From NCBI RefSeq assembly GCF_003574625.1, contig NZ_QNUJ01000002.1:248001-312000 (forward strand): a DNA stretch of 64,000 nucleotides. The letters are read 5' to 3'. A model generated the notes under the pieces. It was not told where the DNA came from. It saw only the letters and a list, made by a program, of their open reading frames with translations, and ran no database searches. The DNA is from Shinella zoogloeoides. GTDB taxonomy: Bacteria; Pseudomonadota; Alphaproteobacteria; Rhizobiales; Rhizobiaceae. Positions 1 through 15,710 of the stretch are shown in pieces (the first letter of the stretch is position 1; each line of letters starts with the position of its first letter). The translations under genes were made by a program, and so were the position numbers.

Positions 1-803
1 ATATGCGGGTCGAGGCTGTCGCGCAGGCCGTCGCCGAGAAGGTTGAAGCCGAGCACGGAGAGGAAGATGGCAAGGCCGGGGAAGAGCGCCACCCAGGGCG
101 CGAGCTGGATGAGCTGGCGCGCATCCGTCAGCATCGAGCCCCAGCTCGGGAACGGTGGCTGGATGCCGAGGCCGAGGAAGGAAAGTGCGGCTTCCGACAG
201 TACCGCCGAGCCCATGCCGAGCGTCGCCATGACGAGGATCGGCCCCATCATGTTGGGCAGGATCTGCGTGAACATGATGCGCAGGTCGCCGTAACCGAGC
301 GTCTGCGCCGCCTGCACATAGCCCTGCGATTTCAGCGACAGCGTCGAGGAGCGGGCGATGCGGCAGGTCCAGCTCCAGTTGGTGAGGCCGAGCGCGACGA
401 GGAGCGAGGGCAGGCCCGGGCCGAGCACTGCCATCACGGCAAGCGCGAAGATCAGCGAGGGAATGGCGAGCATGACATTGGTGAGGCCGTTGACGAGGTC
501 GTCCCACCAGCCGCCCCAGTAGCCGGCGGTCATGCCGAGCGTGACGCCGATGATCGAGTTGATCACCTGCGAGACGATGCCGACCGTCAGCGAGATCTGC
601 GCGCCGTAGAGGATGCGGGTATAGACGTCCCGTCCCTGCCCGTCCGTGCCGAACCAGAAGGTCGCGTCCGGCGGCAGTTCGGAAATCATCAGGTCCGCGT
701 CGAGCACCGGGTCGAAGGGCGCAATCCATGGGGCAAGGACGCCGGCGAGGATCACCAGCACCGTCAGCCCCGCGCCGAGCCAGAAGTTGAAGCCGAGGCG
801 CAT
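1..803 (-). CDS. Peptide ABC transporter permease, DppC-like (3' end cut by window edge)
   Basis: Inner-membrane permease of a dipeptide/oligopeptide importer. About 267 codons are visible and the stop lies outside the window. The N terminus has one membrane segment (about residues 8-28) followed by the DppC-type GTDGQGRDVYTRILYG element, then membrane segments and the EAA-type ATPase-contact loop (ALGYGDLRIMFTQILPN-like, near residues 170-190). The protein ends near the usual family length with an LGDGLRDSLDPH-type tail, so only a few residues are missing. ATG at 803 lies 5 bp after the stop of the DppB-like gene. ATPase genes (dppD/dppF) are expected just beyond the window. Confidence 0.93.
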   Translation of the reverse strand, partial: MRLGFNFWLGAGLTVLVILAGVLAPWIAPFDPVLDADLMISELPPDATFWFGTDGQGRDVYTRILYGAQISLTVGIVSQVINSIIGVTLGMTAGYWGGWWDDLVNGLTNVMLAIPSLIFALAVMAVLGPGLPSLLVALGLTNWSWTCRIARSSTLSLKSQGYVQAAQTLGYGDLRIMFTQILPNMMGPILVMATLGMGSAVLSEAALSFLGLGIQPPFPSWGSMLTDARQLIQLAPWVALFPGLAIFLSVLGFNLLGDGLRDSLDPH

Positions 804-808
804 TCCGC

Positions 809-1744
809 TCACTCCTGCTTGATGCGCGGATCGATCGCGGCATAGATCAGATCGACGGCGGTGTTGATGACGAGGAACCACAGCACGATGACGAGGATCG
901 TGCCCTGCACCACGGGAATGTCGCGGATCGCCACGCTGTCGACCAGCAGCGAGCCGATGCCCGGCCAGGCGAAGAGCTTCTCGATGACGACCGCCTGGCC
1001 GATCAGCGAGCCGAACTGCAGGCCGACCGTGGTGACGATCAAAACCAGCGCATTGCGCGCCACATGCCAGCGCACCACCTTGACCTCGCTCATGCCCTTG
1101 GAATGGGCGGTGCGGATGAAATCGGCATTCAGCACGTCGAGCACGCCCGCCCGCGTGGTGCGCGCCAGAAGCGCGAGCGGCGTCACGCCGAGCGTGACGG
1201 CGGGCAGGATGAGGTTGCGAAACGATCCGTCGCCATAGCCGAAGCTTGGCAGCCAGTTCAGTTGCAGGGCGAAAAGGTACATCAACAGCAGGCCCAGCCA
1301 GAACTGCGGCATGGAAAGCCCCGAGACCGCCCCGACCATCGTCACCGTATCGAGCACCGAGCCCGGCCGGAGCGCCGCGAGGAAGCCGAGCGGCACGCCG
1401 ACGACGAGGGCGAAGACCATGGCGGCGATCGCCAGTCGCAGCGAGGCCCACATGCGGTCGTTGATGAGGTCGATCACCGGCTGGCGGGTGCGGAAGGAGG
1501 TGCCGAGGTCGAAACGCGCAAGGTCGGTGACATAGGTCACGAAGCGCTCGACGAGCGGCTTGTTCAGCCCGAACTCCTCATTGAGGCGGGCGATCATCTG
1601 CGGGTCGGCGGCGCGCTTGCCATCGGCGAAGAGGCTTGCCGCGAAGGTGCCGGGCACCACGGAGAAGATGACGAAGATGAGCAGCGCCACCACGACGACC
1701 GTGGGGATGACCTGCAGGATGCGGCGCAGGGTGAAGCGTAGCAT
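809..1744 (-). CDS. Peptide ABC transporter permease, DppB-like
   Basis: A 311-residue BPD_transp_1 permease pairing with the DppC-like protein downstream. The N terminus MLRFTLRRILQVIPT and the membrane segment after it are typical of DppB. The EAA loop near the middle (AHSKGMSEVKVVRWHVARNA) and the C-terminal NTAVDLIYAAIDPRIK tail are also family hallmarks. The frame stays open upstream to 1783, but the MLRF start fits the family N terminus, and the upstream extension would run into the intercistronic hairpin region. It follows the binding-protein gene after an 86-bp gap and is part of one minus-strand operon with the amidohydrolase. Confidence 0.93.
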   Translation of the reverse strand: MLRFTLRRILQVIPTVVVVALLIFVIFSVVPGTFAASLFADGKRAADPQMIARLNEEFGLNKPLVERFVTYVTDLARFDLGTSFRTRQPVIDLINDRMWASLRLAIAAMVFALVVGVPLGFLAALRPGSVLDTVTMVGAVSGLSMPQFWLGLLLMYLFALQLNWLPSFGYGDGSFRNLILPAVTLGVTPLALLARTTRAGVLDVLNADFIRTAHSKGMSEVKVVRWHVARNALVLIVTTVGLQFGSLIGQAVVIEKLFAWPGIGSLLVDSVAIRDIPVVQGTILVIVLWFLVINTAVDLIYAAIDPRIKQE

Positions 1745-1790
1745 GAGCGGTTCCGTGTTGGGCGCCCTTGCGGAGCGCGACAATCGATGC

Positions 1791-1816
1791 GGGGGCGGCG
1801 TGAAGGTGCCGCCCCC
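1791..1816. terminator. GC-rich hairpin between binding-protein and permease genes
   Basis: GGGGGCGGC pairs with GCCGCCCCC across an 8-nt loop, just after the stop of the binding-protein gene. No T-run follows, so on the minus strand it is more likely a partial attenuator or mRNA 3'-end protector that keeps binding protein above permease levels than a full terminator. Confidence 0.6.
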
Positions 1817-1830
1817 GAACCCCTCAAGGC

Positions 1831-3423
1831 TTACTTGCGCGAGTCCGGCGCCGTCTCGTCGATCCAGATCTCGTCATAAGGCTGGACCGCCAGTTCGTTC
1901 GCATTCGGAACGAGGCCGTGGATCCACGGCTGGTAGGCCATGACGGCCTTGTTGTAGTTGAAGAACCAGACCGGCGCGTCGTCCTGCACGATGTTGTTGG
2001 CCTGGCGCAGGAGGTCGTTCTGCTTGGCCGGATCACGCTCCTGCACGGCCGCATCGTAGAGCTTGTCGAATTCGGGGCTCGCATAGCTCGTATAATTGCA
2101 GGCCGACTGCGCCGTCCTGGAATGGTAGCAGCGCAGCGCGTTCAGCGGGTCGGGACCGGACAGGTTCGACCAGATGAAGGCCTGGAAGTTGTTCGTCGTC
2201 ACCGCCTCGCCGAGGGCGGAGCTTTCCACCGGCTTCGGCTTCACGGTGATGCCGACCTTCTTCAGCATCGGCAGGATCGCCTCGACGATCGGCACGCCCC
2301 AGCTTTCGTTCGGGCTTGCCGTGACTTCGAACTCGAAGCCGTCGGCATAGCCGGCTTCCGCCAAAAGGGCCTTGGCCTTTTCCGGATCGAAGGCATAGGG
2401 CGCCTTGTCCTTGTCGAAGGCCGGCGAGGAGATCGGCAGCCAGCCGGAGGCCGGATAGGCCTTGTTCTTGACGAGGCGCTCGATGATCAGCGGCGAATTG
2501 ATCGCATAGTTGATCGCCTGGCGGACCCGCTTGTCCTTGAAGGGCTCGAAGGCCGGGTTGAAGCCGATATTGCGGGTATAGACCTCGGCGACCTCGAGGA
2601 GATGATCCTTCAGCCCCTCCTCGCCCTGATAGGCCTGGTACTGCGTCGGGCCGAGAATCGAGACGTCGATTTCCTTGTTGCGGAAGGCGACGTCGCGCGC
2701 GGCGTCCTCGGCCATCAGCACGATGTTGATGCGGTCGAGATAGGGCTTGCCTTCCTCGTAGTACTTGTCGAACTTCTCGACGACGACCTGCGAGCCCGGC
2801 ACATGCTCCTTGAAGACGAAGGCGCCGAGGCCGACGGGGTTCTTGCCGAAGGAGGATTCGTCCTCGACATTCGACGGATAGATGACCGTCGTGTTCTGCA
2901 TCAGCGGGAAGCCCGGATTGATCGGGCCGGTATAGGTGATCTCCAGCGTGTTGTCGTCGATCTTCTTCAGGCCGGAAATCTCCTCAGCCTTGCCGGCGAT
3001 ATAGTCGTCCGCGCCCTTGATATTGGCGATGAAGCTCGCGCCCGGGAAGGCGTTCTTCGGATTGGCGATGCGCTTGTAGCTATAGACGATGTCGTCGGCC
3101 GTCAGCGGCTTGCCGTTGTGGAAGACGGCGTTCTTGCGCAGGTGATAGGTGTGGGTCGTGCCGTCCTCGGAGACTTCTTCGGAATCGGCGAGTTCCAGCA
3201 CCGGCTTGTTCTGGTTGGAGTCCCAGCTGTAGAGCGCGCGGTGGATGGCCTGGGTGATGAATTCTTCCTGCGTGTTCGGGCTTGCCTGTACGTCGAGCGT
3301 CGCGAAGCTCGAGCCGTAGGGCGCGGTGAAGACGAGCGTTCCGCCGGAACGTTCACCCGCTGCCAGCGCCCCGGTAGCCACCCCGAGGCCGAGCATTGCG
3401 GCCAATGTCAGTCTTTTCAGCAT
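1831..3423 (-). CDS. Peptide ABC transporter substrate-binding protein, DppA/OppA type
   Basis: A 530-residue periplasmic binding protein of the SBP_bac_5 family, presumably delivering peptides to the DppBC-like permeases encoded next. A Sec signal peptide occupies about residues 1-24 (MLKRLTLAAMLGLGVATGALAA). The family N-terminal signature of a GTLVF strand followed by LDVQASPNTQEEF is present, as is the later YSYKRIANPKN element. ATG 3423 is preceded by GAGAGGGAGAACGAA, a good ribosome site; in-frame codons upstream have no such support. The gene lies 56 bp after the amidohydrolase stop. Ligand cannot be read from sequence; the context suggests peptides or amides, possibly with D-residues. 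Confidence 0.93.
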   Translation of the reverse strand: MLKRLTLAAMLGLGVATGALAAGERSGGTLVFTAPYGSSFATLDVQASPNTQEEFITQAIHRALYSWDSNQNKPVLELADSEEVSEDGTTHTYHLRKNAVFHNGKPLTADDIVYSYKRIANPKNAFPGASFIANIKGADDYIAGKAEEISGLKKIDDNTLEITYTGPINPGFPLMQNTTVIYPSNVEDESSFGKNPVGLGAFVFKEHVPGSQVVVEKFDKYYEEGKPYLDRINIVLMAEDAARDVAFRNKEIDVSILGPTQYQAYQGEEGLKDHLLEVAEVYTRNIGFNPAFEPFKDKRVRQAINYAINSPLIIERLVKNKAYPASGWLPISSPAFDKDKAPYAFDPEKAKALLAEAGYADGFEFEVTASPNESWGVPIVEAILPMLKKVGITVKPKPVESSALGEAVTTNNFQAFIWSNLSGPDPLNALRCYHSRTAQSACNYTSYASPEFDKLYDAAVQERDPAKQNDLLRQANNIVQDDAPVWFFNYNKAVMAYQPWIHGLVPNANELAVQPYDEIWIDETAPDSRK

Positions 3424-3479
3424 TTCGTTCTCCCTCTCGTGCCGTTTTCGGCATCGTTTCGTTTCAGTCCGGCAGGCCG

Positions 3480-5105
3480 TCAGCGCGCATCGTGCACGAC
3501 GCGGCCTGCAAGCAGGGTCAGCAGGCAGCGCGTGCCTGAGAGAATGGTGTCTGTCGGGGCCTCCAGAAGATCGTTGTCGAAGACGGCGATGTCCGCCCAC
3601 TGGCCGGGCACGAGCCGGCCCTTCACGCCCTCCGCCTTCTGCGAATAGGCGCCGTATTCGGTATAGGCCTGCAGGGCCTCCTCGCGGCCCAGTGTCTCGG
3701 ATGCCTCCATCACCGTGCCCTTGCCGGTCTCGCGCGTCACCATGGCGTGGAGGTTCGGGAAGGGATCGGGCGAGCAGACCGGCGAATCCGAACCCGTCGA
3801 GGGCTTGAGGCCGAGGCGCATCCAGGTGCCGATGGGGTAGGACGGAAGGCCGCGCTCCTCGCCGAGCACCGCGATGTAGCTATCGCCGAAATCGTGGATG
3901 AAGGCCATCTGCGGCGCCGGCAGGATGCCCGCCGCCTTCATGCGCTCATGCTGCTGCGGCGTGGAAAAGCCGCAATGCTCGATGCGGTGGCGGCGATCCG
4001 GGTCGGGATTGTCGGCCAGCGCCTTCTCGTAGGCGGTGATGAGCTGCTCGATCGCCCCGTCGCCGATGGCGTGGCAGACCATCTGGTAGCCCCGGTCGTG
4101 ATAGTCCTTGACGGCCGCATAAACCACCTCGTCGGGCAACATCTGCACGCCGATATTGTCCGGCTCGTCCTCATAGGGCTTCGTCATCCAGGCCGTGCGC
4201 CCGCCGGCCGAGCCGTCGAGGAAGACCTTGACGCCGCCGACGCGCAGCATGTCGTCGCCCTTGCCCGAAAGCAGCCCGGCGCGCCAGCAATCCTCGACGA
4301 TGGAGACGCCGGGATCGCCGAGCAACGTCAGCCAGACGCGCAGCGGCAGGCGGCCGGCGAGCTTGGCCATCTCATAGGCCTGGATCTCGGCGAAGCCGGC
4401 GACATGGCCGACGGCCGCATCCATGCAGCTCGTGATGCCGAAGGAAAGAAGATGCCTGCCGCCGCGCTCGATGCCGTCGATCAGCTCCTCGGTCGTCGCC
4501 TCGGGCATTACGGCCTTGACGAGGTTCTGGGCGTTTTCCGCAAGCAAGCCGTTCAGCCTGCCGCCGGTGAGGCCGATCACGCCGCCATCCGGCACCGGCG
4601 TCGCCTCGGTGATGCCGGCCAGTTCCAACGCGCGGGAATTGGCGATGGAGACATGGCCGCAGGCCCGCGTCAGCAGGACCGGATGATCCGGCGCGGCGCG
4701 GTCGAGATCCTCGCGGGTTGGGTGCCGGCCGGTATCGAGCTTGACCTGGTCGTAGCCGCGGCCGCGCACCCAGGCCCCCTTCGGCGTCGCCGCCGCACGC
4801 TCGGAAATCCGCGCCATGAGGTCGGCAAGCGTCGGCGCTGCGGCGGGCGTCGCATCCACATGGCCCATGGCGATGCCGGTGGCGATGAGATGCAGGTGAT
4901 TGTCGATGAGGCCGGGGCTGGCAAAGCGGCCTTCGAGATCGATGACCTCGGTCGAGGGGCCCTTGAGGCCCAGGATATCGGCATTGCTGCCGGTTGCGAG
5001 AACCTTTCCCTGCCAGACGGCAAGGGCTTCGCTGATGCCCTCCGCACGGCCGCGCCAGATGCGGCCATTCACCAGGATAAGATCAGCTTCAATTCCGAAT
5101 GCCAT
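3480..5105 (-). CDS. Amidohydrolase family 3 (YtcJ-like) metal-dependent hydrolase
   Basis: A 541-residue member of the TIM-barrel amidohydrolase superfamily. The N-terminal beta-sandwich (ADLILVNGRIW) leads into the metal-binding DNHLHL motif (H70, H72). IEHCGF near residue 330 and the TGSDSP motif near the C-terminal third supply further metal/acid positions of the YtcJ group. It has no signal peptide, so it is cytoplasmic. It is the first gene of the operon that continues into the peptide binding protein and permeases, suggesting it cleaves an amide or N-acyl substrate brought in by that transporter. ATG 5105 follows AGGGGGACTGTGA. The exact substrate is unknown; YtcJ-like enzymes are poorly characterised. 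Confidence 0.88.
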   Translation of the reverse strand: MAFGIEADLILVNGRIWRGRAEGISEALAVWQGKVLATGSNADILGLKGPSTEVIDLEGRFASPGLIDNHLHLIATGIAMGHVDATPAAAPTLADLMARISERAAATPKGAWVRGRGYDQVKLDTGRHPTREDLDRAAPDHPVLLTRACGHVSIANSRALELAGITEATPVPDGGVIGLTGGRLNGLLAENAQNLVKAVMPEATTEELIDGIERGGRHLLSFGITSCMDAAVGHVAGFAEIQAYEMAKLAGRLPLRVWLTLLGDPGVSIVEDCWRAGLLSGKGDDMLRVGGVKVFLDGSAGGRTAWMTKPYEDEPDNIGVQMLPDEVVYAAVKDYHDRGYQMVCHAIGDGAIEQLITAYEKALADNPDPDRRHRIEHCGFSTPQQHERMKAAGILPAPQMAFIHDFGDSYIAVLGEERGLPSYPIGTWMRLGLKPSTGSDSPVCSPDPFPNLHAMVTRETGKGTVMEASETLGREEALQAYTEYGAYSQKAEGVKGRLVPGQWADIAVFDNDLLEAPTDTILSGTRCLLTLLAGRVVHDAR

Positions 5106-5242
5106 TCACAGTCCCCCTGTCGGCACCGGCGAAGCGCGGAAACGCGACCACACACGCAACAGCGCTGAACGCTCCTGCGGCAAGACGGCTCCAGCCAGCA
5201 CCTATTTCCTCCATAGGCAAGGTGAGAGGTTAAGCCGGCCTT

Positions 5243-5285
5243 GGCCAATTCGCTTTTGGCACCACTCTATGCGAAATCGGCATAG
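5243..5285. promoter_or_regulatory. Candidate LysR operator S1 in the amidohydrolase/LysR divergent region
   Basis: The core is CTATGC-N7-GCATAG (5267-5285), a perfect inverted repeat that contains the LysR T-N11-A pattern (T5270, A5282). About 20 bp away sits CCAATTC with TTTTGGCA. The whole 43-bp block aligns to 9071-9113 with 32 identities. It lies 64 bp before the LysR start and about 140 bp before the amidohydrolase start, as expected for an autoregulated divergent LysR site. Confidence 0.72.
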
Positions 5286-5348
5286 TGATTTCTATTGAAT
5301 GACTTATGATCGCATTTTGGGGCGCGCGGGAGGCGATGGGAGCCGGCG

Positions 5349-6284
5349 ATGGAGATCAAGTGGCTTGAGGATTTCGTGACGCTTGCCGACACGTCGAGCT
5401 TTTCGCGTGCGGCTCAATTGCGCAATGTCACGCAACCTGCCTTCAGCCGGCGCATCAAGCAGCTCGAAGGCTGGCTCGGCGCCACGCTGATCAGCCGCGC
5501 CACCATGCCCGCGGAACTGACGCCGGCCGGGCGCAACTTCCTGCCCGTCGCGCAGGAGGCGATCCGCACCTTCTATGCGGCGCGCGAAGCGCTTCGCCCG
5601 TCGAACGAACCCGGCCTCATCCGCTTCGCCGCGCTGCACACGTTGACCGTCACCTTCTTTCCGCGCTGGCTGCAGGCGCTGGAGAAGGCCGGCGGCGCTT
5701 TCAGCACCTCGCTCATTCCCGACCGCGGCGGCATCGAGGCCAATCTCGACGCGCTCATCGGCGACGAGGCGGATTTCTTCCTGACCTATGCCCATCCCGA
5801 AGTGCCGTTCCACCTCGATCGCGGGCAGTTCGCCTCGCTGACCGTCGCGCAGGACCGGCTGGTCCCGCTCGTGGCGACGGAGATCGTGCTGTCCGGCACG
5901 CCGCAGCCGGGGCGCAACATCCTCGACCGGGCCGTCGCGCAGCCGCGGCTTGCCGTTCCCTATCTCAGCTACGGCTTCAATTCGTTCTTCGGCGTCGCGC
6001 TCTCGCGCCTCATGCTGCGCCGCCCACCCTTCCGCCGCCGCACGACGCATGAGAACACGATCAGCGCCGGCCTGATGAACATGGCCGTGACGGGGGCCGG
6101 CGTGTGCTGGCTGCCGGAAAGCCTTGCGCGCGAGGAAATCGAGGCCGGCCGCCTCGTGCCCGCCTCAGCGGACGAGGGCTGGAACCTCGACCTCGACATC
6201 CGCCTCTATCGCCACGCCGCGCCGCGCAACCGCAAGGTCGAGGACCTGTGGCGCACGGCGCAGCAGGCACTGGAACGCGCCTGA
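5349..6284 (+). CDS. LysR-family transcriptional regulator
   Basis: A 311-residue LysR-type regulator. The winged HTH occupies residues 1-60 (LEDFVTLADTSSFSRAAQ then VTQPAFSRRIKQLEGWLG), followed by the LysR_substrate effector domain. It is divergent from the amidohydrolase/peptide-transport operon and its stop abuts the convergent M55 peptidase gene (stop codons at 6282-6284 and 6285-6287). The start at 5349 follows GGGAG with 6-bp spacing. Because near-identical 43-bp elements lie before this gene and before the transaminase operon, it probably controls peptide uptake and D-amino-acid peptide breakdown together; the inducer is unknown. Confidence 0.93.
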   Translation: MEIKWLEDFVTLADTSSFSRAAQLRNVTQPAFSRRIKQLEGWLGATLISRATMPAELTPAGRNFLPVAQEAIRTFYAAREALRPSNEPGLIRFAALHTLTVTFFPRWLQALEKAGGAFSTSLIPDRGGIEANLDALIGDEADFFLTYAHPEVPFHLDRGQFASLTVAQDRLVPLVATEIVLSGTPQPGRNILDRAVAQPRLAVPYLSYGFNSFFGVALSRLMLRRPPFRRRTTHENTISAGLMNMAVTGAGVCWLPESLAREEIEAGRLVPASADEGWNLDLDIRLYRHAAPRNRKVEDLWRTAQQALERA

Positions 6285-7085
6285 TCAGACCTTGAGAAAG
6301 AGCAGCGCGCGCAGGATCTCGGAAAAGTCCCTGTGCTCGAAGGCGACGGCGCGGGGGCCGTGCGCCTTGGCGCCCGGATACCAGCCGGCGCGATAGGCCT
6401 CCGTCGGCGTGGCGAACTCGATCACCACTTCGTAGTGATCGGCCCTTGCCGGAAGCGCCTGCGCGAAATCGCCCGAGAGCGCCGCCGCCACGCCTTCACG
6501 GATCAGGCGGCGCGACCAGGCGGGTGAGATCGACGTGGAGGCCTTGCCCCTGCCGTCCAGCGTCTCGACCGCGGCAAGGCCGGGCACCATGGCCCGTGCC
6601 TCCGCGCACATGCCGACGTCGCCCGAAAGGAAGACGGACGGCACGCCGTAGCCGGCGGCACAGAGCGCATTGAAGGTGAATTCCGAGGCAACCTCACCGT
6701 TGAGCAACAGCCGCGAGATGCGGAGGTTCGAGGTATGGGCGAGCGGATTGACCTCCGTCCCCGCCTTGGAATGGTAGCCGGTATAGAGCGCCGCCGCGAA
6801 GGTCTCGTCGATGCCGAACATCATCTCGTCGGGATGGCCGGACCAGCCGCGCACGATGCGGGCATAATCCGGCAGACGGTCGAGGATGAGATTGCGGCCG
6901 CTGTCATGGGCGTCCTTGATCACCACTTCCGTCGCGCCGGCAGCCCGCGCGCCCTCGCAGGCGGCAACCACCTCGGCGGTCATCAGGGCACGGAACTCGG
7001 CCCAGTCGGGGTGAGCGCGGTCGGCCTCGTTCCAGTGGGCGATACCGGCGGTGCCTTCGATATCTGCGGAGATGAAGACTTTCAT
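6285..7085 (-). CDS. M55 family D-aminopeptidase (DppA-type zinc peptidase)
   Basis: A 266-residue cytoplasmic zinc peptidase of family M55, whose Bacillus subtilis prototype DppA removes N-terminal D-amino acids from short peptides. The family residues are visible: D8 and E10 in SADIEG, H60 in IKDAHDSG, H105 in GYHSKAGT, the presumed catalytic H117 in NPLAHTSN, and acidic residues in LNGEVASE (131-135). ATG 7085 overlaps the stop of the S58 peptidase in an ATGA (7082-7085), so the two are translationally coupled. It is last in the transaminase operon and converges with the LysR gene. Not to be confused with the peptide-binding protein also called DppA. Confidence 0.93.
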   Translation of the reverse strand: MKVFISADIEGTAGIAHWNEADRAHPDWAEFRALMTAEVVAACEGARAAGATEVVIKDAHDSGRNLILDRLPDYARIVRGWSGHPDEMMFGIDETFAAALYTGYHSKAGTEVNPLAHTSNLRISRLLLNGEVASEFTFNALCAAGYGVPSVFLSGDVGMCAEARAMVPGLAAVETLDGRGKASTSISPAWSRRLIREGVAAALSGDFAQALPARADHYEVVIEFATPTEAYRAGWYPGAKAHGPRAVAFEHRDFSEILRALLFLKV

Positions 7086-8119
7086 GGCAGCGGGTTCTCC
7101 TTGAGCCAGTCGGCGAGCGAGGGATAGAGGCGGCCGTTGCGGGCGGGCGTGGCGGGCGCCATGCAGAGCGCGTTCAGCACCGCCTCCTGCGTGGTCTCGG
7201 CGGCGGCGCGGAAAGCGATGTCGATATGGTCGTCGGCAAGCCGCTCCTGCGTGGAAAAGGCCCTGGCCGGATCGTGCTCCACCGGATCGGCGGTGGTGAA
7301 ACAGAGGACGACGTCGCCGCTGCCATGCCCCCAGAACGCGCCGAGCCGGGCAAGCCCCGCCCCACCGCGCCGCGCGACGCGCTGCAACTGGCGATCGCCG
7401 AGCGGAAGGTCCGTCGCCATCACAACGATGATCGAGCCGCGCTCGGGGCTGGCCGCTGCGCGTGGATCGGGCCGGCGGCCGTCCGGCAGGACGAGATCGC
7501 CCGCCGCGCCGAAATTGGCGAGCACCAGCGTGCCGAGCGTGAAATCGCGCTTGCCGATGCGCATCAGCCGCGAGGCCGTGCCGATACCGGCCTTGAAGCT
7601 GAAGGCGGTCATGCCGGAGCCGGCCCCGACCGCGCCCTGCCCCACGGGACCGGGCTTCGCCGCGTCCAGCGCGGCGTCGGCATCGGCGGGCGTCACCGCC
7701 AGCGCCTGGATATCGTTGATGCTGCCGTCGTTGCATTCACAGACCAGCGCATTGACCGTCGAGGTCTTGCGGCCGATGGCAGGGTTGGCGGCGATGGCGC
7801 GGCGGATGAGCGCCTCTGTGCAGGCCGCGACGCCGAAGGTGTTGGTCAGCAGGATCGGCGTTTCGATGGTGCCAAGCTCGGCCACCTGCATCAGGCCGGC
7901 CGACTTGCCGAAGCCGTTGATGACCTCGACCGCCGCCCGCGGCTTCAGGCGGAACGGATCGCCGGCATGGGGAACGATGGCCGTGACGCCGGTGAAGCGC
8001 CCGTCGCCGCGCAGCGAGCGATGGCCGACGGCAACGCCCGCAACGTCCGTGATGGCGTTGCCCGGTCCCGGCGCGAGCCTTCCTTCGGGCATCAAGCCCC
8101 ATTCCCGTGCCGTCTTCAT
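7082..8119 (-). CDS. S58 family (DmpA/P1) autoproteolytic aminopeptidase
   Basis: A 345-residue DmpA-like N-terminal nucleophile peptidase. This family self-cleaves before a Ser/Thr to give alpha and beta chains; members include the L-aminopeptidase/D-esterase DmpA and beta-peptidyl aminopeptidases. The N terminus GPGNAITDVAGVAVGH is a family hallmark, CECNDGSIND (128-136) supplies the oxyanion Asn region, and GAGSGM contains the predicted cleavage site Gly167|Ser168. The start at 8119 gives MKTAREWGL, and the end overlaps the M55 gene. Lying between a D-amino-acid transaminase and a D-aminopeptidase, it most likely acts on peptides with D- or beta-residues; stereospecificity cannot be read from sequence. 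Confidence 0.92.
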   Translation of the reverse strand: MKTAREWGLMPEGRLAPGPGNAITDVAGVAVGHRSLRGDGRFTGVTAIVPHAGDPFRLKPRAAVEVINGFGKSAGLMQVAELGTIETPILLTNTFGVAACTEALIRRAIAANPAIGRKTSTVNALVCECNDGSINDIQALAVTPADADAALDAAKPGPVGQGAVGAGSGMTAFSFKAGIGTASRLMRIGKRDFTLGTLVLANFGAAGDLVLPDGRRPDPRAAASPERGSIIVVMATDLPLGDRQLQRVARRGGAGLARLGAFWGHGSGDVVLCFTTADPVEHDPARAFSTQERLADDHIDIAFRAAAETTQEAVLNALCMAPATPARNGRLYPSLADWLKENPLP

Positions 8120-8145
8120 GCCGCCCCTCCCAACGCCTCCCTTTC

Positions 8146-8997
8146 CTAGACCGGAACGCCGGCCGCTTCCAGATAGAGCGCCTGGAGTTTTCGCGTCATC
8201 GGGCCGGGCCTGCCATCGCCGACCGTATGCTCGCCGATGCGCACGACGGGCATGACGAGGCTGGAGGCAGAGGTCTGGAACGCCTCGGCGGCGCCCTGCG
8301 CCTCTTCCGGCGAGAAGGCGCGCTCCTCGATGGTGAGCCCCTCGGCGGCGCAGAGCCGGGCAAGGGCGCGCTGCGTGCAGCCCGGCAACGTCGCCTGCGA
8401 GGCGGCGCGGGTGAGGATGCGCCCGTTGGCGGTGATGACATGGGCGGTCGCGGAGGCGCCCTCCGTCACCAGCCCGCCCTCCACCAGCCATACGTCGTCG
8501 AAGCCGCGGGCGCGCGCGGCCTGCTTGGCCATGACCTGGCCGAGCAGCATGGCCGTCTTGATGTCTCGCCGCTGCCAGCGCGGGTCCTCCGCCAGATCGA
8601 CGGAAATGCCCTCCCGCTGGCCCTTGGTGCCGGTCAGCACCTTTGCCTGCGTGAAGCCAACGAGCCGCGGCGCGAGCGCATCCGAATAGAGGAAGTCGCG
8701 GTCCGCTTCGCCGCGCGAGACATGCAGGTAGATCGTGCCGTCCCGCAGGCCGTTGCGGGCCATCAGCTCCGTCTGCACCGCGGCGATCTCCTCCAGCGGC
8801 AGCGGCAGCGGAATGGCGAGCTCCCCCACCGAACGCTCGAGACGGGCAAGATGAAGGTCATTGTCGATCATCCGGCCGTCGATGACGGCCGTCACCTCGT
8901 AGATCGCATCGCCGAACAGGAAACCGCGGTCGAAAAGCCCGATGCGGGCCTCCTCCTCCGGCACGAATTGACCGTGGATATAGACGATCCTGCCCAT
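8146..8997 (-). CDS. Class IV aminotransferase, D-amino-acid transaminase type
   Basis: A 283-residue PLP enzyme of fold type IV. Close in length to D-alanine transaminase. RGFLFGDAIYEV (24-35) is the usual N-terminal element, K147 in RDIKTAMLL is the predicted Schiff-base lysine, and VTEGASATAH (E179) matches the cofactor-binding glutamate region. It would convert D-amino acids and 2-oxoglutarate to oxoacids and D-glutamate. ATG 8997 gives MGRIVYIHG and follows GAGGAAGA. It is the first gene of the operon with the S58 and M55 peptidases, giving a logical route: release of D-residues, then deamination. Branched-chain or aminodeoxychorismate-lyase-like activity cannot be excluded. Confidence 0.9.
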   Translation of the reverse strand: MGRIVYIHGQFVPEEEARIGLFDRGFLFGDAIYEVTAVIDGRMIDNDLHLARLERSVGELAIPLPLPLEEIAAVQTELMARNGLRDGTIYLHVSRGEADRDFLYSDALAPRLVGFTQAKVLTGTKGQREGISVDLAEDPRWQRRDIKTAMLLGQVMAKQAARARGFDDVWLVEGGLVTEGASATAHVITANGRILTRAASQATLPGCTQRALARLCAAEGLTIEERAFSPEEAQGAAEAFQTSASSLVMPVVRIGEHTVGDGRPGPMTRKLQALYLEAAGVPV

Positions 8998-9070
8998 CTC
9001 TTCCTCTTGGCTCCGGCTGCGCGGGACTGCCCCGCTTTCGCGCGGACCATAGGAACGACCGGCATCGGCT

Positions 9071-9113
9071 GACCAATTCAATTTGGGCAGGACCTTATGC
9101 AAAATCTGCCTAG
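9071..9113. promoter_or_regulatory. Candidate LysR operator S2 upstream of the D-amino-acid transaminase operon
   Basis: This 43-bp block is 32/43 identical, without gaps, to 5243-5285. It carries the same CCAATTC...GGCA half and the same ATGC-AAATC-GC-TAG half, although the second arm is imperfect (GCCTAG instead of GCATAG). It lies 74 bp upstream of the transaminase ATG and ends 20 bp before the Dap stop codon, so the transaminase operon has its own regulated promoter. Confidence 0.7.
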
Positions 9114-9132
9114 GCTATTATTTTTCAGAAGC

Positions 9133-10695
9133 TTAGCCGCATTTTTCATAGTTGATGCCGCGCGCCAGCCAGCAGCCGAGCGTCAGGCCGGCAATGCGTC
9201 CGGCCTCGTCGCGACGGGCCTGCAGTGTCCAGTCGCCGGGCGCCGGCGCGTCCATCGAGCGCCGCGTCGCGACGATCCAGAGGTCCGGCCCCGCCGGCAG
9301 GACGATCTCCGGACGGCCGGTCCCGAGGAAGCCCTCGGCCCAGAGATAGGTGCCGCCGTCCCGGCATTCGATGACGATGCCGGCGTCCAGTTCCGCGGAA
9401 TGGTAACGCCCGGCGATCTCCGTCGAACCGGCCGGCGGCGCGGCGGCTACCGGCACCAGTCGCTCGGCATGGTTTTCCGAGGGGCGTCGCATCAGGATAT
9501 CCTCGCCATCGCGGCTGATCGTGACGGAGGAGGAGGCAAGGCCGCCCTCCGGCGCTTCCCACAGCGTTTCCGGCGATGTGGCGAAACGCAGGGTCGCCGC
9601 GTCGTATCCCGATTCCAGCCGCGCCAGCAGCCCGGTCTCGCGGCTGATCCACCGGCCCGACCAGCGCTCCTTGAGCGGCTGGGCAACGGGATGCGGCAGG
9701 CCGAGCGCCGCGCGCAGGATCCGGTGAGCCGCACCATAGGCATCGCCGTGATGGTTGAACATGACGACGACCGAAAGCCGCGCCTCGGTCGAGGCGACGC
9801 GGTAGGCGCGGAAGCCGCGCAGGGCGCCGCTATGGCCGGTGAAGGCGAAATCGCCGACGCGCGCATGCTGCAGGCCGAAACCATAAGCCGCCGGCGCACC
9901 GTCGCGGAAGGTCTGCGGCACGGCGATGCGCCGGTAGAGGCTTTCCGGGTCCTCGCGCATCGCGTCGATCCAGCATTCATAGGCCAGCATGTCGTCGAGC
10001 GAGGCGGAAATGCCGGCGTCGCCCCGCCAGTAGATGCCGTTTTCCGCCTGCATGTAGCCCGTCGCGTCGTTGCCCTCATAGCCGACGACACCGTCTTCCG
10101 GCCGGCGCGTATCGGCCGTCAGCACCGCGCCCGCCATGCCGGCCGGCTGCCAGATGTGGCGCGCATAGAGCGCCTCCAGCGTCTCTCCCGAAGCCTCCTC
10201 GACGAGCTCGGCGACGAGCCGGAAATTGCCGTTGCTGTAGGAATAGCGCGTGCCCGGCGCGAAATGCCCGGTGCGCGTGCGGGCGTAGACCTTCGCCGCA
10301 TCCTCGCGCGAAAATTCCTGCTCGGCCTTCGCGCCATGCAGCACGGTCAGCGCCCAGTAGTCGCGCAGGCCCGACTGGTTGTTGCAGAGATCGCGCACCG
10401 TTGGCAGGGGGCCCTCGAAATTCGGCAGGCGCGCGGCGAGCCGTTCGTCGAGCGCCTCGGGCGCGCCGCAGGCGGCAAGCATCGCCGCGCAGGTGAACTG
10501 CTTGGAGACCGAGCAGATCGGCAGCCGCGTTGCCGCGGTCATCGCCTGGTGCGTGTCGAGATCGGCAAAGCCGAAGGCCCGCCGAGCGATCACATGCCCC
10601 TCGCTCACCACCCCGACAACACCGCCCGGACCGGAAAAGCGAGCCGCAAACCCGTCCAGCTCCGCCTCGATCCGCCCGCCGTCGATCATGCCCAT
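9133..10695 (-). CDS. dap: D-aminopeptidase Dap (serine peptidase family S12, beta-lactamase fold)
   Basis: A 520-residue protein, the same length as the D-stereospecific aminopeptidase of Ochrobactrum anthropi, which releases N-terminal D-Ala, D-Ser or D-Thr. Catalytic positions agree: S62 and K65 in CSVSKQFT, Y153 in YSYSNGN, and H288 in TGHSGALRG. The DLCNNQSGLRDYWAL block is nearly identical to the recalled Ochrobactrum enzyme. Two further C-terminal beta-barrel domains are present, including the RSMDAPAPGDWTLQ element whose loop enters the active site in that enzyme. There is no signal peptide. It starts at 10695 (MGMIDGG) after GGGAGACGCGC and is divergent from an Lrp-type regulator. 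The frame remains open far upstream, antisense to the hydantoinase gene; that part is not coding. Confidence 0.96.
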   Translation of the reverse strand: MGMIDGGRIEAELDGFAARFSGPGGVVGVVSEGHVIARRAFGFADLDTHQAMTAATRLPICSVSKQFTCAAMLAACGAPEALDERLAARLPNFEGPLPTVRDLCNNQSGLRDYWALTVLHGAKAEQEFSREDAAKVYARTRTGHFAPGTRYSYSNGNFRLVAELVEEASGETLEALYARHIWQPAGMAGAVLTADTRRPEDGVVGYEGNDATGYMQAENGIYWRGDAGISASLDDMLAYECWIDAMREDPESLYRRIAVPQTFRDGAPAAYGFGLQHARVGDFAFTGHSGALRGFRAYRVASTEARLSVVVMFNHHGDAYGAAHRILRAALGLPHPVAQPLKERWSGRWISRETGLLARLESGYDAATLRFATSPETLWEAPEGGLASSSVTISRDGEDILMRRPSENHAERLVPVAAAPPAGSTEIAGRYHSAELDAGIVIECRDGGTYLWAEGFLGTGRPEIVLPAGPDLWIVATRRSMDAPAPGDWTLQARRDEAGRIAGLTLGCWLARGINYEKCG

Positions 10696-10917: not shown

Positions 10918-11433
10918 ATGGAACCGGAAATGAGCCAGCGCTACATCGTCGACGATCTGGACCGTGAGATCATCCGCTATCTCTCCGAGGACGGTCGTCT
11001 TTCGGCGGCGGAAATCGCCGGCCGGATCGGCAGCGTCTCCGAGCGCACGATCCGCAACCGCATTGCCACCCTGCTGCAGGCGAAGATGATCGTCATCGGC
11101 GCCATTCCCGATCCTGTCGCCCTTGGGCGCGATGTTCAGGTGGAATTGCTCATCGAGGTCGAGGCGGGTCGGCAGGAAGAGGTCGCCATCCAGCTCGCCG
11201 AATATGACGAGATCGGCTACCTCGCGGCGACCAGCGGCACGGCCAATCTCAGCGCCTCGCTCTTCGTCGCCGACCATGCGGCGCTTCTCGAATTCATCGA
11301 CCAGGAGCTGGGCAAGCTGCCCGGCGTCAAGCGTGTGACGAGCTCGGTCGTCCTGCGGCTCTACAAGGTATTCGGCACGAGGACGACCGCGATCAGCCGC
11401 GGCTCGGACCTCGGCGGCAAGAAGAAAGGATAA
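10918..11433 (+). CDS. Lrp/AsnC-family transcriptional regulator
   Basis: A 171-residue Lrp-like regulator. The AsnC-type HTH is at the N terminus (LDREIIRYLSEDGRLSAAEIAGRIG, then SERTIRNRIATL), followed by an alpha-beta RAM effector domain (VQVELLIEVEAG through SSVVLRLYKVF). The frame allows starts at 10918 (MEPEMSQ) and 10930 (MSQRY); the latter follows GGAACCGGAA and may be the real one. It is divergent from dap and only 3 bp before the hydantoinase-like gene, so it probably heads that operon and may control dap from the shared region. The ligand is presumably an amino acid or derivative. Confidence 0.92.
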   Translation: MEPEMSQRYIVDDLDREIIRYLSEDGRLSAAEIAGRIGSVSERTIRNRIATLLQAKMIVIGAIPDPVALGRDVQVELLIEVEAGRQEEVAIQLAEYDEIGYLAATSGTANLSASLFVADHAALLEFIDQELGKLPGVKRVTSSVVLRLYKVFGTRTTAISRGSDLGGKKKG

Positions 11434-11436
11434 CCC

Positions 11437-12981
11437 ATGCTGCGCATTGGGGTGGATGTGGGCGGAACCAACACGGATGCGGCGCTGCTGCGCGGCACCG
11501 AGGTTCTGGCGACGGTGAAGTCCTCGACCACGGCGGACGTGACCTCGGGCGTCAGCGCGGCCATCCGCACGGTGCTCGCCGAGGCGGGCGTCGCCGCCGG
11601 CTCGGTCGATGCCGTCATGATCGGCACCACGCACTTCCTCAATGCCGTCGTCGAAGGCCGGCATCTGGAAAAGGTCGGCGTGCTGCGCCTTTGCGGCGCC
11701 TCCACCCGGTCCCTGCCGCCGATGATCGACTGGCCGGACACGCTTCGCCCCGTCGTCGATGGCGGCGCGGCGCTGGTCGGCGGCGGCGTCAACTATGACG
11801 GCTCGGAGATTGCCCCGCTCGACGGTCCGGCGATCCGTGAGGCCTGCCGTGACTGGCGCGCCCGCGGCATCGGCGCCGTCGCCATCTGCTCCGTCTTCGC
11901 GCTGGTCGATCCGCGCATGGAAAACGAGGCGGCCGAAATCGTCGCCGAGGAAATGCCGGAGGCGGCGATCAGCCTGTCGCACCGCGTCGGCCGCACGGGC
12001 CTGCTGCCGCGCGAGAGCGCCACCATCCTCAATGCCAGCCTCCACACGCTCGGCCGCGAGACGGTCGGCGCCTTCCGCTCGGCCTTCGCCGCGCTCGGCC
12101 TTGATTGCCCGCTCTACCTCACCCAGAACGACGGCACGCTGATGACGGCGGACTTCGCCGAGCGCTATCCGGTCTTCACCATCGCCTCCGGCCCGACCAA
12201 TTCCATGCGGGGTGCGGCCTTCCTCACCGGGCTTTCCGACGCCGCGGTGATCGACATCGGCGGCACCACCACCGATATCGGCATGCTGGTCGCCGGCTTC
12301 CCGCGCACCCGCAGCGAGGGCGCGATGATCGGCGGCGTGCCGACCAATTTCCGCGTGCCCGACGTCTATTCCTTCGGCCTCGGCGGCGGCAGCATCGTGC
12401 GGCCCGGCGACGCGCCGACGGTCGGCCCGGACTCGGTCGGCTTCCGGCTGCCGGAAAAGGCTCTTTGCTTCGGCGGTGATACCCTGACGGCGACCGACAT
12501 CGCGGTGGCCGCCGGCCTCGTCGATCTCGGCGACCGCGACCGCCTTTCGCAGATCACGCCCGATTTCGCCCGCCGGATGCTGGCGCAGATGAAGGCGAGC
12601 ATCGAGACGGTGCTCGACCGCATGAAGCCGAGCGCGGAGCCGATCCCGGCCATCCTCGTCGGCGGCGGCTCGGTGCTCGTCGACGGGCTGCTGGAAGGCA
12701 CCTCCGTCTCGCTGAAGCCGGATCACTTCGGCTCGGCCAATGCCATCGGCGCGGCCATCGCGCAGGTCTCCGGCGAGGTCGACAGCGTGGTCTCGCTGGA
12801 AGGCACGACGCGTGAGAAGGCGCTTGAAAGCGTGGTGGCCGAGGCGCGCGCCCGCGCGGTCGAGGCGGGCGCGGCGGCCGAGACGGTGACGCTCGCCGAA
12901 ATCGAGGAGACGCCGCTGGCCTACCTGCCCGGCAATGCCGTGCGCATCGCGGCGAAAGTCATTGGAGAACTCAGGGCATGA
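11437..12981 (+). CDS. Hydantoinase/oxoprolinase family protein, HyuA-like
   Basis: A 514-residue protein with the hydantoinase A N-terminal domain (MLRIGVDVGGTNTDAALL, an ASKHA-type phosphate loop) and the main HyuA domain containing a second motif, VIDIGGTTTDIGMLVAGFP, near residues 270-290. Relatives are ATP-dependent hydrolases of cyclic amides such as N-methylhydantoin, 5-oxoproline, or acetone carboxylase subunits. It is shorter than full HyuA proteins (about 650-700 residues) and there is no hyuB partner here; its partner position is taken by the DUF917 gene, whose start overlaps its stop in ATGA (12978-12981). This short-HyuA plus DUF917 pairing recurs in known genomes by recollection, but its substrate is not established. 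Confidence 0.88.
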   Translation: MLRIGVDVGGTNTDAALLRGTEVLATVKSSTTADVTSGVSAAIRTVLAEAGVAAGSVDAVMIGTTHFLNAVVEGRHLEKVGVLRLCGASTRSLPPMIDWPDTLRPVVDGGAALVGGGVNYDGSEIAPLDGPAIREACRDWRARGIGAVAICSVFALVDPRMENEAAEIVAEEMPEAAISLSHRVGRTGLLPRESATILNASLHTLGRETVGAFRSAFAALGLDCPLYLTQNDGTLMTADFAERYPVFTIASGPTNSMRGAAFLTGLSDAAVIDIGGTTTDIGMLVAGFPRTRSEGAMIGGVPTNFRVPDVYSFGLGGGSIVRPGDAPTVGPDSVGFRLPEKALCFGGDTLTATDIAVAAGLVDLGDRDRLSQITPDFARRMLAQMKASIETVLDRMKPSAEPIPAILVGGGSVLVDGLLEGTSVSLKPDHFGSANAIGAAIAQVSGEVDSVVSLEGTTREKALESVVAEARARAVEAGAAAETVTLAEIEETPLAYLPGNAVRIAAKVIGELRA

Positions 12982-14099
12982 AGTACTGGACGCTCACCGA
13001 GGCGGATATCGATCGGATCGCGGTCGGCTGCGGCATTCTCGGCACCGGCGGCGGCGGCAGCACCTATCACGGCTCTCTGCGCGCCAAGGCGCTGCTGCGC
13101 GAGGGCAAGCGCATCCGCATGGTGCGCCCGGCCGACATGGCGCCGGACGCGCAGATCATCGGGATCGGCGGCATCGGCGCACCGACCGTCGGCATCGAGA
13201 AGATCGCCGAGGGCGGCGAGGGCGTGCGCCTGATGCACGCACTCGAACGGCATATGGGCCGCAAGGTCGATGCGCTGCTCGGCGACGAGGTCGGCGGCGG
13301 CAACGGCATCGCGCCGATGCTGACGGCGGCCATGGTCGACCTGCCGGTGGTAGACGCCGACGGCATGGGCCGCGCCTTCCCCGAAGTGCAGATGACGACC
13401 TTCTTCATCCACGGCCAGCCGGTACAGCCGGCGGCACTCGCCGATGCCGACGGCAATGTCCTGATCGTCACCGAGGCGACCACGCCGAAGATGCTGGAAA
13501 AGCTTTTGCGCGCCAGCACCATCGCCATGGGCTGCACGGCGCTGATGACGACCGCGCCGATGTCCGGCGACTTCGTGCGCCGCTTCGGCGTGCCGCACAC
13601 GACGAGCCAGGCCTGGAGCCTCGGCAATGCGGTGCTGAACGCCCGCGCCGCCAAGGAGGATCCGGTCGAGGCGATCCTCAGGCAGTCCGGCGGCATACGC
13701 CTGATGCGCGGCAAGGTCACCGACATCGCCCGCCGCGTCAGCGCCGGCTTCAACCGCGGCACGCTGACCGTCGCGGGGCTCGACGAGGATGCGGGGCGCT
13801 CGATCGCCATCGAGATCCAGAACGAATATCTCATCGCCCGCGAGGGCGAGACGATCATCACAATGGTGCCGGATCTGATCTGCATCGTGGATTCGGAGAC
13901 CGGCCGCGCCATCGGCACGGAAGAGCTGCGCTACGGCCTGCGCATCGACGTGCTCTCCATGCCCGCACCGGTGCTGCTGCGCAGCGAGATCGCGCTGGAG
14001 TCCGTCGGCCCGCGGGCCTTCGGCTATGATTTCGACTTCGTGCCCGTCGGCATATCCGCCGATGCGCCCGCCGTTCCGCAATATGAAGAAGACGCCTGA
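12978..14099 (+). CDS. DUF917 family protein (thiohydantoin-desulfurase-related)
   Basis: A 373-residue protein of the DUF917 family, recognised by its N-terminal VGCGILGTGGGGSTYHGSLRAK, followed by GDEVGGGNGIAPML and DADGMGRAFPEVQM. A member of this family has, to my recollection, been tied to desulfuration of a thiohydantoin in ergothioneine breakdown; whether this copy shares that chemistry is inference. It overlaps the HyuA-like gene by ATGA and precedes a complete peptide ABC transporter, so the likely scheme is uptake of a heterocyclic or peptide-like compound followed by ring processing by the HyuA/DUF917 pair. No signal peptide, so cytoplasmic. Confidence 0.85.
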   Translation: MKYWTLTEADIDRIAVGCGILGTGGGGSTYHGSLRAKALLREGKRIRMVRPADMAPDAQIIGIGGIGAPTVGIEKIAEGGEGVRLMHALERHMGRKVDALLGDEVGGGNGIAPMLTAAMVDLPVVDADGMGRAFPEVQMTTFFIHGQPVQPAALADADGNVLIVTEATTPKMLEKLLRASTIAMGCTALMTTAPMSGDFVRRFGVPHTTSQAWSLGNAVLNARAAKEDPVEAILRQSGGIRLMRGKVTDIARRVSAGFNRGTLTVAGLDEDAGRSIAIEIQNEYLIAREGETIITMVPDLICIVDSETGRAIGTEELRYGLRIDVLSMPAPVLLRSEIALESVGPRAFGYDFDFVPVGISADAPAVPQYEEDA

Positions 14100-14131
14100 C
14101 CGTCCGCCCACCAACCTCCCGGGAGACCGAC

Positions 14132-15694: not shown

Positions 15695-15710
15695 GGCTTA
15701 CGGCGGTCCG

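What the first reader, a model, noticed from the sequence alone, without database searches (positions are those of the whole stretch)
1..10695. A dedicated D-amino-acid peptide utilisation regulon with three unrelated aminopeptidases
Within 4.5 kb there are an M55 D-aminopeptidase, an S58 DmpA-type autoproteolytic peptidase and an S12 Dap-type D-aminopeptidase, joined to a D-amino-acid transaminase, a peptide ABC transporter and an amidohydrolase. The three peptidases have unrelated folds and mechanisms (zinc, N-terminal nucleophile, Ser-Lys-Tyr) and are encoded by genes whose known relatives act on D- or unusual N-terminal residues. Together they form a logical route from imported D-peptides (peptidoglycan fragments, non-ribosomal peptides) to oxoacids. 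I do not know of a described pathway with this combination.
Basis: partly seen in the sequence, partly recalled or inferred. Interest (0 to 1): 0.82.

Follow-up and report, generated by a model that had tools for sequence, protein, structure and literature searches.

The report
LysR-controlled unusual-peptide scavenging gene cluster
A Shinella-like bacterium carries neighbouring genes for a peptide importer, three unrelated aminopeptidases and a D-amino-acid transaminase; two of the peptidases recur side by side in distant bacteria and most of the genes probably share one switch, which points to a machine for eating peptides that contain mirror-image amino acids.

Summary
In detail: M55, S58 and S12/DAP peptidases lie within 4.4 kb (6285-10695), with a D-amino-acid transaminase (DAAT), LysR, Amidohydro_3 and a peptide ABC transporter whose two ATPases lie just outside the window. 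Comparison changes the reading. (1) S58-M55 is the recurrent pair: adjacent at 8 of 14 M55 loci in a family sample (0.05 expected at random) and 7 of 11 in a phylum sample, there beside a peptide ABC importer and, in one family, beside an epimerase or DgcN (D-Glu catabolism). (2) A 47-bp composite LysR-type site precedes the amidohydrolase and is repeated before DAAT, so DAAT-S58-M55 plus amidohydrolase-transporter is probably one regulon. (3) The DAP gene lies upstream of that second site and is absent from 5 of the 10 genus clusters that hold all the other genes: an accessory. (4) The S58 belongs to an ECND subfamily apart from the DmpA-like (ETYD) clade, and DmpA itself prefers L-peptides (recalled), so "three D-aminopeptidases" overstates it. 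Most likely: import of mixed L/D peptides (peptidoglycan stem fragments or similar), alternate trimming, transamination. Substrate untested. New variant of a known kind.

The parts
1..803 (-). ABC permease 2 (DppC-like); about 18 bases of its 3' end lie outside the window; two ABC ATPase genes follow in L009 (10112 to about 12000)
   Evidence: BPD_transp_1 97.9 bits; L009 ABC_tran + oligo_HPY in two neighbouring frames
809..1744 (-). ABC permease 1 (DppB/GsiC/Opp2B-like)
   Evidence: Pfam; best NCBIfam Opp2B 309, under cut-off 350
1831..3423 (-). peptide-type solute-binding protein (SBP_bac_5); secretion-signal-like start, judged by eye
   Evidence: 315.8 bits; best solved match 8upi, a peptide ABC SBP
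3480..5105 (-). Amidohydro_3 metal-dependent amidohydrolase, role unassigned
   Evidence: 429.9 bits; best solved matches 3icj, 3igh, both uncharacterised
5239..5285 (-). composite LysR-type site A in the LysR/amidohydrolase divergent promoter (consensus ATGC-N7-GCAT, then GCCAA-N7-TTGGC)
   Evidence: found, with variation, in all 15 gaps aligned
5349..6284 (+). LysR-family regulator, divergent from the amidohydrolase operon, convergent with M55
   Evidence: HTH_1 + LysR_substrate; 12 of 13 orthologues in the family sample (E under 1e-70) lie within about 4 kb of an S58 gene
6285..7085 (-). M55 aminopeptidase (DppA-like); positions matching the DppA metal ligands present
   Evidence: 275 bits; 1hi9; D8, E10, H60, H105, E135, H117 (roles recalled); only M55 in the genome
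7082..8119 (-). S58 N-terminal-nucleophile aminopeptidase, ECND subfamily, predicted autocleavage G228|S229
   Evidence: 343 bits; 2drh, 1b65; tree
8146..8997 (-). D-amino-acid transaminase (PRK06680 subfamily), Lys147 aligned with the 1daa PLP lysine (role recalled); a second paralog lies elsewhere in the genome
9067..9113 (-). composite LysR-type site B, between the DAP stop codon and DAAT
   Evidence: weight matrix trained on site A only: 29.7; next independent hit in the window -18.0
9133..10695 (-). S12 D-aminopeptidase (Beta-lactamase + DAP_B domains), accessory gene upstream of site B
   Evidence: equivalog 673.8 over 443; 1ei5 486 bits; S62, K65, Y153, N155, H288

Best explanation
A nutrient-scavenging regulon for short peptides with unusual (mixed L/D) residues. 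The ABC importer brings peptides into the cytoplasm. S58, here probably acting on L- or small N-terminal residues, and M55, acting on D-residues, trim them in alternation; in this lineage an accessory DAP adds a second D-aminopeptidase. A dedicated DAAT paralog turns released D-amino acids into 2-oxoacids. A LysR regulator switches DAAT-S58-M55 and amidohydrolase-SBP-ABC together through two copies of one composite site. The likeliest natural substrates are peptidoglycan stem-peptide fragments or other bacterial D-peptides. Shown by sequence: gene content, conserved neighbourhood, the duplicated site, DAP lying outside it. Inferred: direction of transport, cytoplasmic location, stereopreference, substrate, LysR binding.
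For: Domains and catalytic residues. DAAT-S58-M55-LysR-amidohydrolase-SBP-ABC together at 10 of 13 M55 loci of the genus; S58-M55-LysR-amidohydrolase-SBP-ABC at 4 of 12 family-sample loci outside the genus (L047, L052, L056, L057; DAAT in L047 and L056 only). S58-M55 adjacency at 8 of 14 loci in the family sample, 0.05 expected at random, and at 7 of 11 in the phylum sample. L094 and L096 (two genera of one family): importer-S58-M55 beside an enolase-superfamily epimerase; L094 also has DgcN (equivalog 524.6 over 480); the L096 epimerase passes L-Ala-D/L-Glu epimerase (355.8 over 343). Site B is found with a matrix trained on site A only. DAAT is a second paralog.
Against: No substrate test. 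The S58 family is not D-specific in peptides (DmpA, recalled), and 8 of 20 S58 genes not next to M55 also have the ECND motif. Some distant S58-M55 operons carry a beta-aspartyl-peptidase homologue, which fits iso-peptides as well. At 6 of 14 family and 4 of 11 phylum M55 loci no S58 is adjacent (L050 is near a contig end). M55 and DAAT miss the strict equivalog cut-offs. Site B was not found in L047, L052 or L057, although L047 has DAAT. The amidohydrolase has no assigned role.
Confidence: 0.58

Rival explanations
1. Iso-peptide, beta-peptide or glutathione-like peptide catabolism: the importer is Gsi-like and S58 cleaves beta-amino or iso-linked N-termini; D-stereochemistry is secondary.
For: Some distant S58-M55 operons have an RpiR regulator and an Asparaginase_2 protein related to beta-aspartyl-peptidase (423 against cut-off 567); the one ATPase tested is GsiA-like (1038.6 against cut-off 1077). 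The S58 family includes beta-peptidyl aminopeptidases (3n2w).
Against: M55 and DAAT fit D-residues better; L094 and L096 adjoin an L-Ala-D/L-Glu or DgcA-like epimerase. No beta-aspartyl-peptidase was found among the window genes tested at 1-10695 or the L009 genes tested.
Confidence: 0.22
2. General scavenging of ordinary oligopeptides by promiscuous aminopeptidases, with D-specific names inherited from annotation.
For: DmpA prefers L-peptides (recalled); SBP and permease 1 reach no NCBIfam cut-off.
Against: A second DAAT paralog in the cluster, DAP over its equivalog cut-off, and rarity of M55 in the family (13 of 121), which ill suits a housekeeping peptidase.
Confidence: 0.12
3. Degradation of, or self-protection against, D-amino-acid-containing natural products (non-ribosomal peptides, antibiotics).
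For: DAP has a penicillin-recognising-enzyme type fold (family Beta-lactamase) and is found in varied contexts.
Against: The importer and DAAT point to catabolism. No biosynthetic gene was recognised among the neighbours tested; an APH-family phosphotransferase gene lies about 8 kb off in L009, untested.
Confidence: 0.06

Closest known systems
Bacillus subtilis dppA-E with neighbouring ykfA-D (murein-peptide use)
   Same: M55 with a dipeptide ABC transporter, next to stem-peptide enzymes. Passages of PMC2954226 say that ykfA-D lie next to dppB-E and give the pathway; DppA as a D-aminopeptidase at the head of that operon is recalled.
   Different: No S58, DAP, DAAT, amidohydrolase or LysR there (recalled); no YkfA/B/C-type gene among the genes tested at 1-10695.
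E. coli iaaA-gsiABCD (glutathione import; recalled)
   Same: In L093, an S58-M55 operon, a GsiA-like fused ATPase and a beta-aspartyl-peptidase homologue
   Different: The window cluster has no such peptidase here and has two separate ATPases; the E. coli operon has no S58 or M55 (recalled).
DgcN-DgcA D-glutamate catabolism
   Same: DgcN and an enolase-superfamily gene adjoin the importer-S58-M55 genes in L094; a DgcA/epimerase-like gene in L096. Pathway seen in passages of PMC10845958; its primary paper is not held.
   Different: Not among the genes tested in the window cluster; DAAT would do the D-residue step.
Pseudomonas putida dbu operon (PMC12724383; title and start of abstract in a search listing)
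   Same: A regulated D-amino-acid catabolic operon with a transporter
   Different: Free D-branched-chain amino acids by an oxidase; no peptidase mentioned in what I saw.
Agrobacterium YejBEF-YepA muropeptide import (PMC9790009; title and start of abstract in a search listing)
   Same: ABC import of peptidoglycan fragments in Rhizobiales
   Different: Muropeptide recycling; I did not test whether its genes resemble the window's transporter.

Membership tests
S12 D-aminopeptidase (DAP, 1ei5 type) | Beta-lactamase domain plus DAP_B domain | tested here: met
   162.5 and 160 bits
S12 D-aminopeptidase (DAP, 1ei5 type) | curated equivalog cut-off; SxxK, YxN, HxG residues (roles recalled) | tested here: met
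   (673.8 over 443)
S12 D-aminopeptidase (DAP, 1ei5 type) | activity on D-Ala N-termini | not testable with these tools
   needs assay
M55 DppA | M55 domain and metal-binding positions | tested here: met
M55 DppA | Bacillus DppA equivalog cut-off | tested here: not met
   136.6 against 430; so filed as an M55 relative, not as DppA
S58 DmpA | S58 family with G|S autocleavage motif | tested here: met
S58 DmpA | place in the ETYD (DmpA-like) clade | tested here: not met
   ECND clade, 96/90 support, apart from a 100/100 ETYD/ETWD clade; DmpA itself was not in the tree, its motif was read
D-amino-acid transaminase | fold-type IV Aminotran_4 and PLP lysine | tested here: met
D-amino-acid transaminase | TIGR01121 equivalog cut-off | tested here: not met
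   201 against 277; PRK06680 subfamily met, 334 over 320
D-amino-acid transaminase | 1daa carboxylate motif R98-x-H100 (recalled) | tested here: not met
   R kept, H replaced by F
LysR regulon | same operator-like site at more than one promoter | tested here: met
LysR regulon | LysR binds those sites | not testable with these tools
   needs gel shift

The most novel reading that the evidence does not exclude
S58 (ECND type) and M55 are a conserved partner pair across Pseudomonadota that, with a peptide importer, strip mixed-chirality peptides by taking turns: one handles L- (or beta/iso-) N-termini and the other D-N-termini, so that neither stalls. The Shinella cluster is a three-peptidase extension under a two-site LysR switch.
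Probability: 0.35. Interest if true: 0.6.

Novelty: new variant of a known kind. Interest (0 to 1): 0.45.

Why it matters
It gives a concrete genetic and regulatory handle on how some bacteria may consume D-residue peptides such as cell-wall remains. It singles out an S58-M55 pair that can be assayed at once, and it shows that which genes stand together (three peptidases) is not the same as which genes seem to be controlled together.

Tried and rejected
Rejected: (a) Lrp/AsnC as the common regulator. Of the 13 M55 loci of the genus it was found next to the cluster only in the window, G431 and G425, within the stretches read. (b) A single DAP-DAAT-S58-M55 operon under LysR: site B lies between DAP and DAAT, and no such site was found upstream of DAP. 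(c) Tyr146 of DmpA replaced by Asn as proof of new specificity: a passage of PMC9570944 says that position is replaced in most of the sequences its authors compared.

Led nowhere: paper searches on the combination (open-access library only). In one search none of the 20 listed of 26 papers held more than two of the four terms; one search gave 5 papers, none with 'P1 family peptidase'; two searches gave none. No search asked for all three peptidases by every name they go by, so this is weak evidence that the combination is not in print. Fold prediction was not used, because the enzymes and the SBP had sequence relatives with solved structures.

Limits: the S58 list was cut at its weak end. In one search only up to 19 candidates per genome were scored and the E cut-off was mine. 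The expected value assumes random placement and ignores relatedness; the 8 loci fall in 7 genera. The scan used six exact peptide patterns, so it finds close relatives; several of its loci have short flanks. The 20 unlinked S58s were picked by me from the list. Row L094 was dropped from the S58 tree (275 aa; match in two pieces). L016 is labelled linked but adjoins DAP, not M55. L110 was checked by pattern, not by matrix. The window pattern was drawn from the two window sites themselves.
Full report
WHAT IS THERE. The window is G000:C12:248001-312000 of a 5.38-Mb genome. Its nearest named relatives by the DAP gene are Shinella (80% identity). On the minus strand lie S12/DAP (9133-10695), DAAT (8146-8997), S58 (7082-8119) and M55 (6285-7085), then, past a convergent LysR (5349-6284, plus strand), Amidohydro_3 (3480-5105), SBP (1831-3423) and two permeases. 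The two ATPases are outside the window. The genome has one M55 and two S58 genes and two DAATs over the PRK06680 cut-off, the cluster copy being the lower-scoring one (333.6 against 422.9).

ENZYMES. DAP passes the D-aminopeptidase equivalog, matches 1ei5 over residues 4-518 and has S62, K65, Y153, N155 and H288. M55 matches 1hi9 at 103.5 bits and keeps the metal positions, but is far under the Bacillus DppA cut-off. S58 matches 2drh (238.5 bits) and 1b65, DmpA (186.6 bits), and keeps the G|S cleavage motif. Where DmpA has ETYD, the window and 2drh have ECND. All 25 cluster-linked S58s read have ECND. Of 20 S58s not next to M55, 8 have ECND, 9 ETYD or ETWD, 2 ETND and 1 none of these. In a tree of 45 rows, 24 M55-linked S58s (window included), the DAP-linked L016 and those 8 unlinked ones form one clade (96/90), apart from a clade of the 9 ETYD/ETWD rows (100/100). 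So linkage to M55 is confined to the ECND group in this sample but does not define it. That DmpA prefers L-residues in real peptides is recalled. Residue roles are recalled throughout.

WHAT IS CONSERVED. In a family sample of 121 genomes, M55 is in 13 (14 loci), S58 in 111 and DAP_B in 12. S58 adjoins M55 at 8 of 14 loci, with 36 to 93 bp between domain matches; random placement within 3 kb would give 0.05. In G040 the order is reversed (L053). DAP adjoins M55 only in the window (1 of 12 DAP genomes); four of the other DAP genomes (G075, G078, G096, G106) have an M55 on another contig. Two DAP genomes of one genus (L074, L075) and G106 (L079) have DAP beside another peptide-type ABC set. In a phylum sample of 299 genomes M55 is over the cut-off in 12 including the window's; of the 11 others, 7 have S58 next to it with SBP, permease and ATPase matches alongside.

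In the genus, 21 genomes were searched: M55 in 13, DAP in 13. Of the 13 M55 loci (the window's; L055; the other 11), S58 is adjacent in 12, DAAT and LysR in 11, the amidohydrolase in 10, DAP in 7, all three peptidases in 6, and the complete set including importer in 5. G425, 96-99% identical over the shared genes, has the same locus, Lrp side included, without DAP. In G426, DAP-M55 stands without S58 between genes of two other peptide ABC transporters. In Rhizobium sp. Root482 (L014) DAP stands beside LysR-amidohydrolase-SBP-ABC with no DAAT, S58 or M55 match. Of 21 DAP loci from genome contigs, 15 have no S58, M55, DAAT, LysR or amidohydrolase match (tblastn, E 1e-8). DAP is therefore an accessory gene. 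LysR orthologues (E under 1e-70) are in 13 of 121 family genomes; 12 of these lie within about 4 kb of an S58 gene, a tighter link in this sample than S58-M55.

REGULATION. The LysR-amidohydrolase gap holds a composite site, consensus ATGC-N7-GCAT followed by GCCAA-N7-TTGGC, in all 15 gaps aligned. A weight matrix made only from these sites (14 distinct) scores the DAP-DAAT gap of the window 29.7; the next independent hit in 64 kb is -18.0. In 10 of 10 other scanned DAAT loci of the close group (L055, L056, L105-L107, L111-L115), a site before DAAT scores 9.5 to 30.2; an eleventh, L110, has it by pattern. Against it: nothing above -4.2 was found in L104, L108, L109, L012, L016, L046, L051, L093 or L099, and no second site in L047, L052, L057 or L014, although L046 and L047 have a DAAT. 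The core pattern, drawn from both window sites, has two perfect matches in the genome, these two, plus one with two mismatches elsewhere; the reversed control has none. Site B begins 19 bases past the DAP stop codon, so DAP is upstream of it. That this looks like a LysR T-N11-A box is recalled; binding is inferred.

SUBSTRATE. In distant genomes, tested in part, S58-M55 goes with further genes: an RpiR-type regulator was confirmed by Pfam in L093, L095, L097 and L046, an Asparaginase_2 (beta-aspartyl-peptidase-like) protein in L093, L099 and L046, and a GsiA-like ATPase in L093 (1038.6 against 1077). In L094 the importer adjoins an enolase-superfamily protein and DgcN (over its cut-off); in L096 an epimerase that passes L-Ala-D/L-Glu epimerase and just misses DgcA (390 against 400). 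L094 and L096 come from two genera of one family, so they are not independent. These neighbours favour peptidoglycan-type L/D peptides, while the beta-aspartyl-peptidase homologue keeps iso-peptides open. The B. subtilis arrangement of ykfA-D beside dppB-E is from passages of PMC2954226.

VERDICT. A real, co-inherited and probably co-regulated peptide-catabolism cluster; a new variant of a known kind.

Noticed in passing
window 10918-18509: Lrp/AsnC regulator, HyuA-like, S-Me-THD (DUF917) protein and a second SBP/ABC set, divergent from DAP; beside the peptidase cluster only in the window, G431 and G425 among the genus loci read.
   Followed up: partly
L051 9353-12952, L054 6492-10191, L102 9426-13174: Another M55 setting: M55 (63-64% to the window's) beside a different Beta-lactamase-family protein and a PLP enzyme (BioF/Kbl-like in L051), with ABC transporter genes.
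   Followed up: partly
L094 9815-18460; L096 9885-17793: Importer-S58-M55 genes adjoining an enolase-superfamily protein, in L094 also DgcN: a lead for peptidoglycan D-Glu use.
   Followed up: partly
L013 11630-13253 (same locus as L109 4969-6592): Amidohydrolase in two pieces in different frames beside DAP in Shinella lacus; no match to S58, M55, DAAT or LysR in the stretch.
   Followed up: no
L108 12552-14953: DAP directly before M55, without S58 and DAAT matches, between genes of two peptide-type ABC transporters.
   Followed up: no
L113 5506-15729: DAAT-S58-M55-LysR kept with a site before DAAT, but a different peptide ABC set and no amidohydrolase match in place of the usual operon.
   Followed up: no
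L009 2783-5345 (outside the window): An APH-family phosphotransferase gene next to a class-III aminotransferase gene, beyond a sugar-type ABC set on the far side of the peptide ATPases.
   Followed up: no
L116 and L123 regions (G108:C5, G119:C6), G078:C4, G016:C2, G071:C2, G086:C247: LysR orthologue with an S58 gene nearby but no M55 found beside it: a possible older LysR-S58 core.
   Followed up: no
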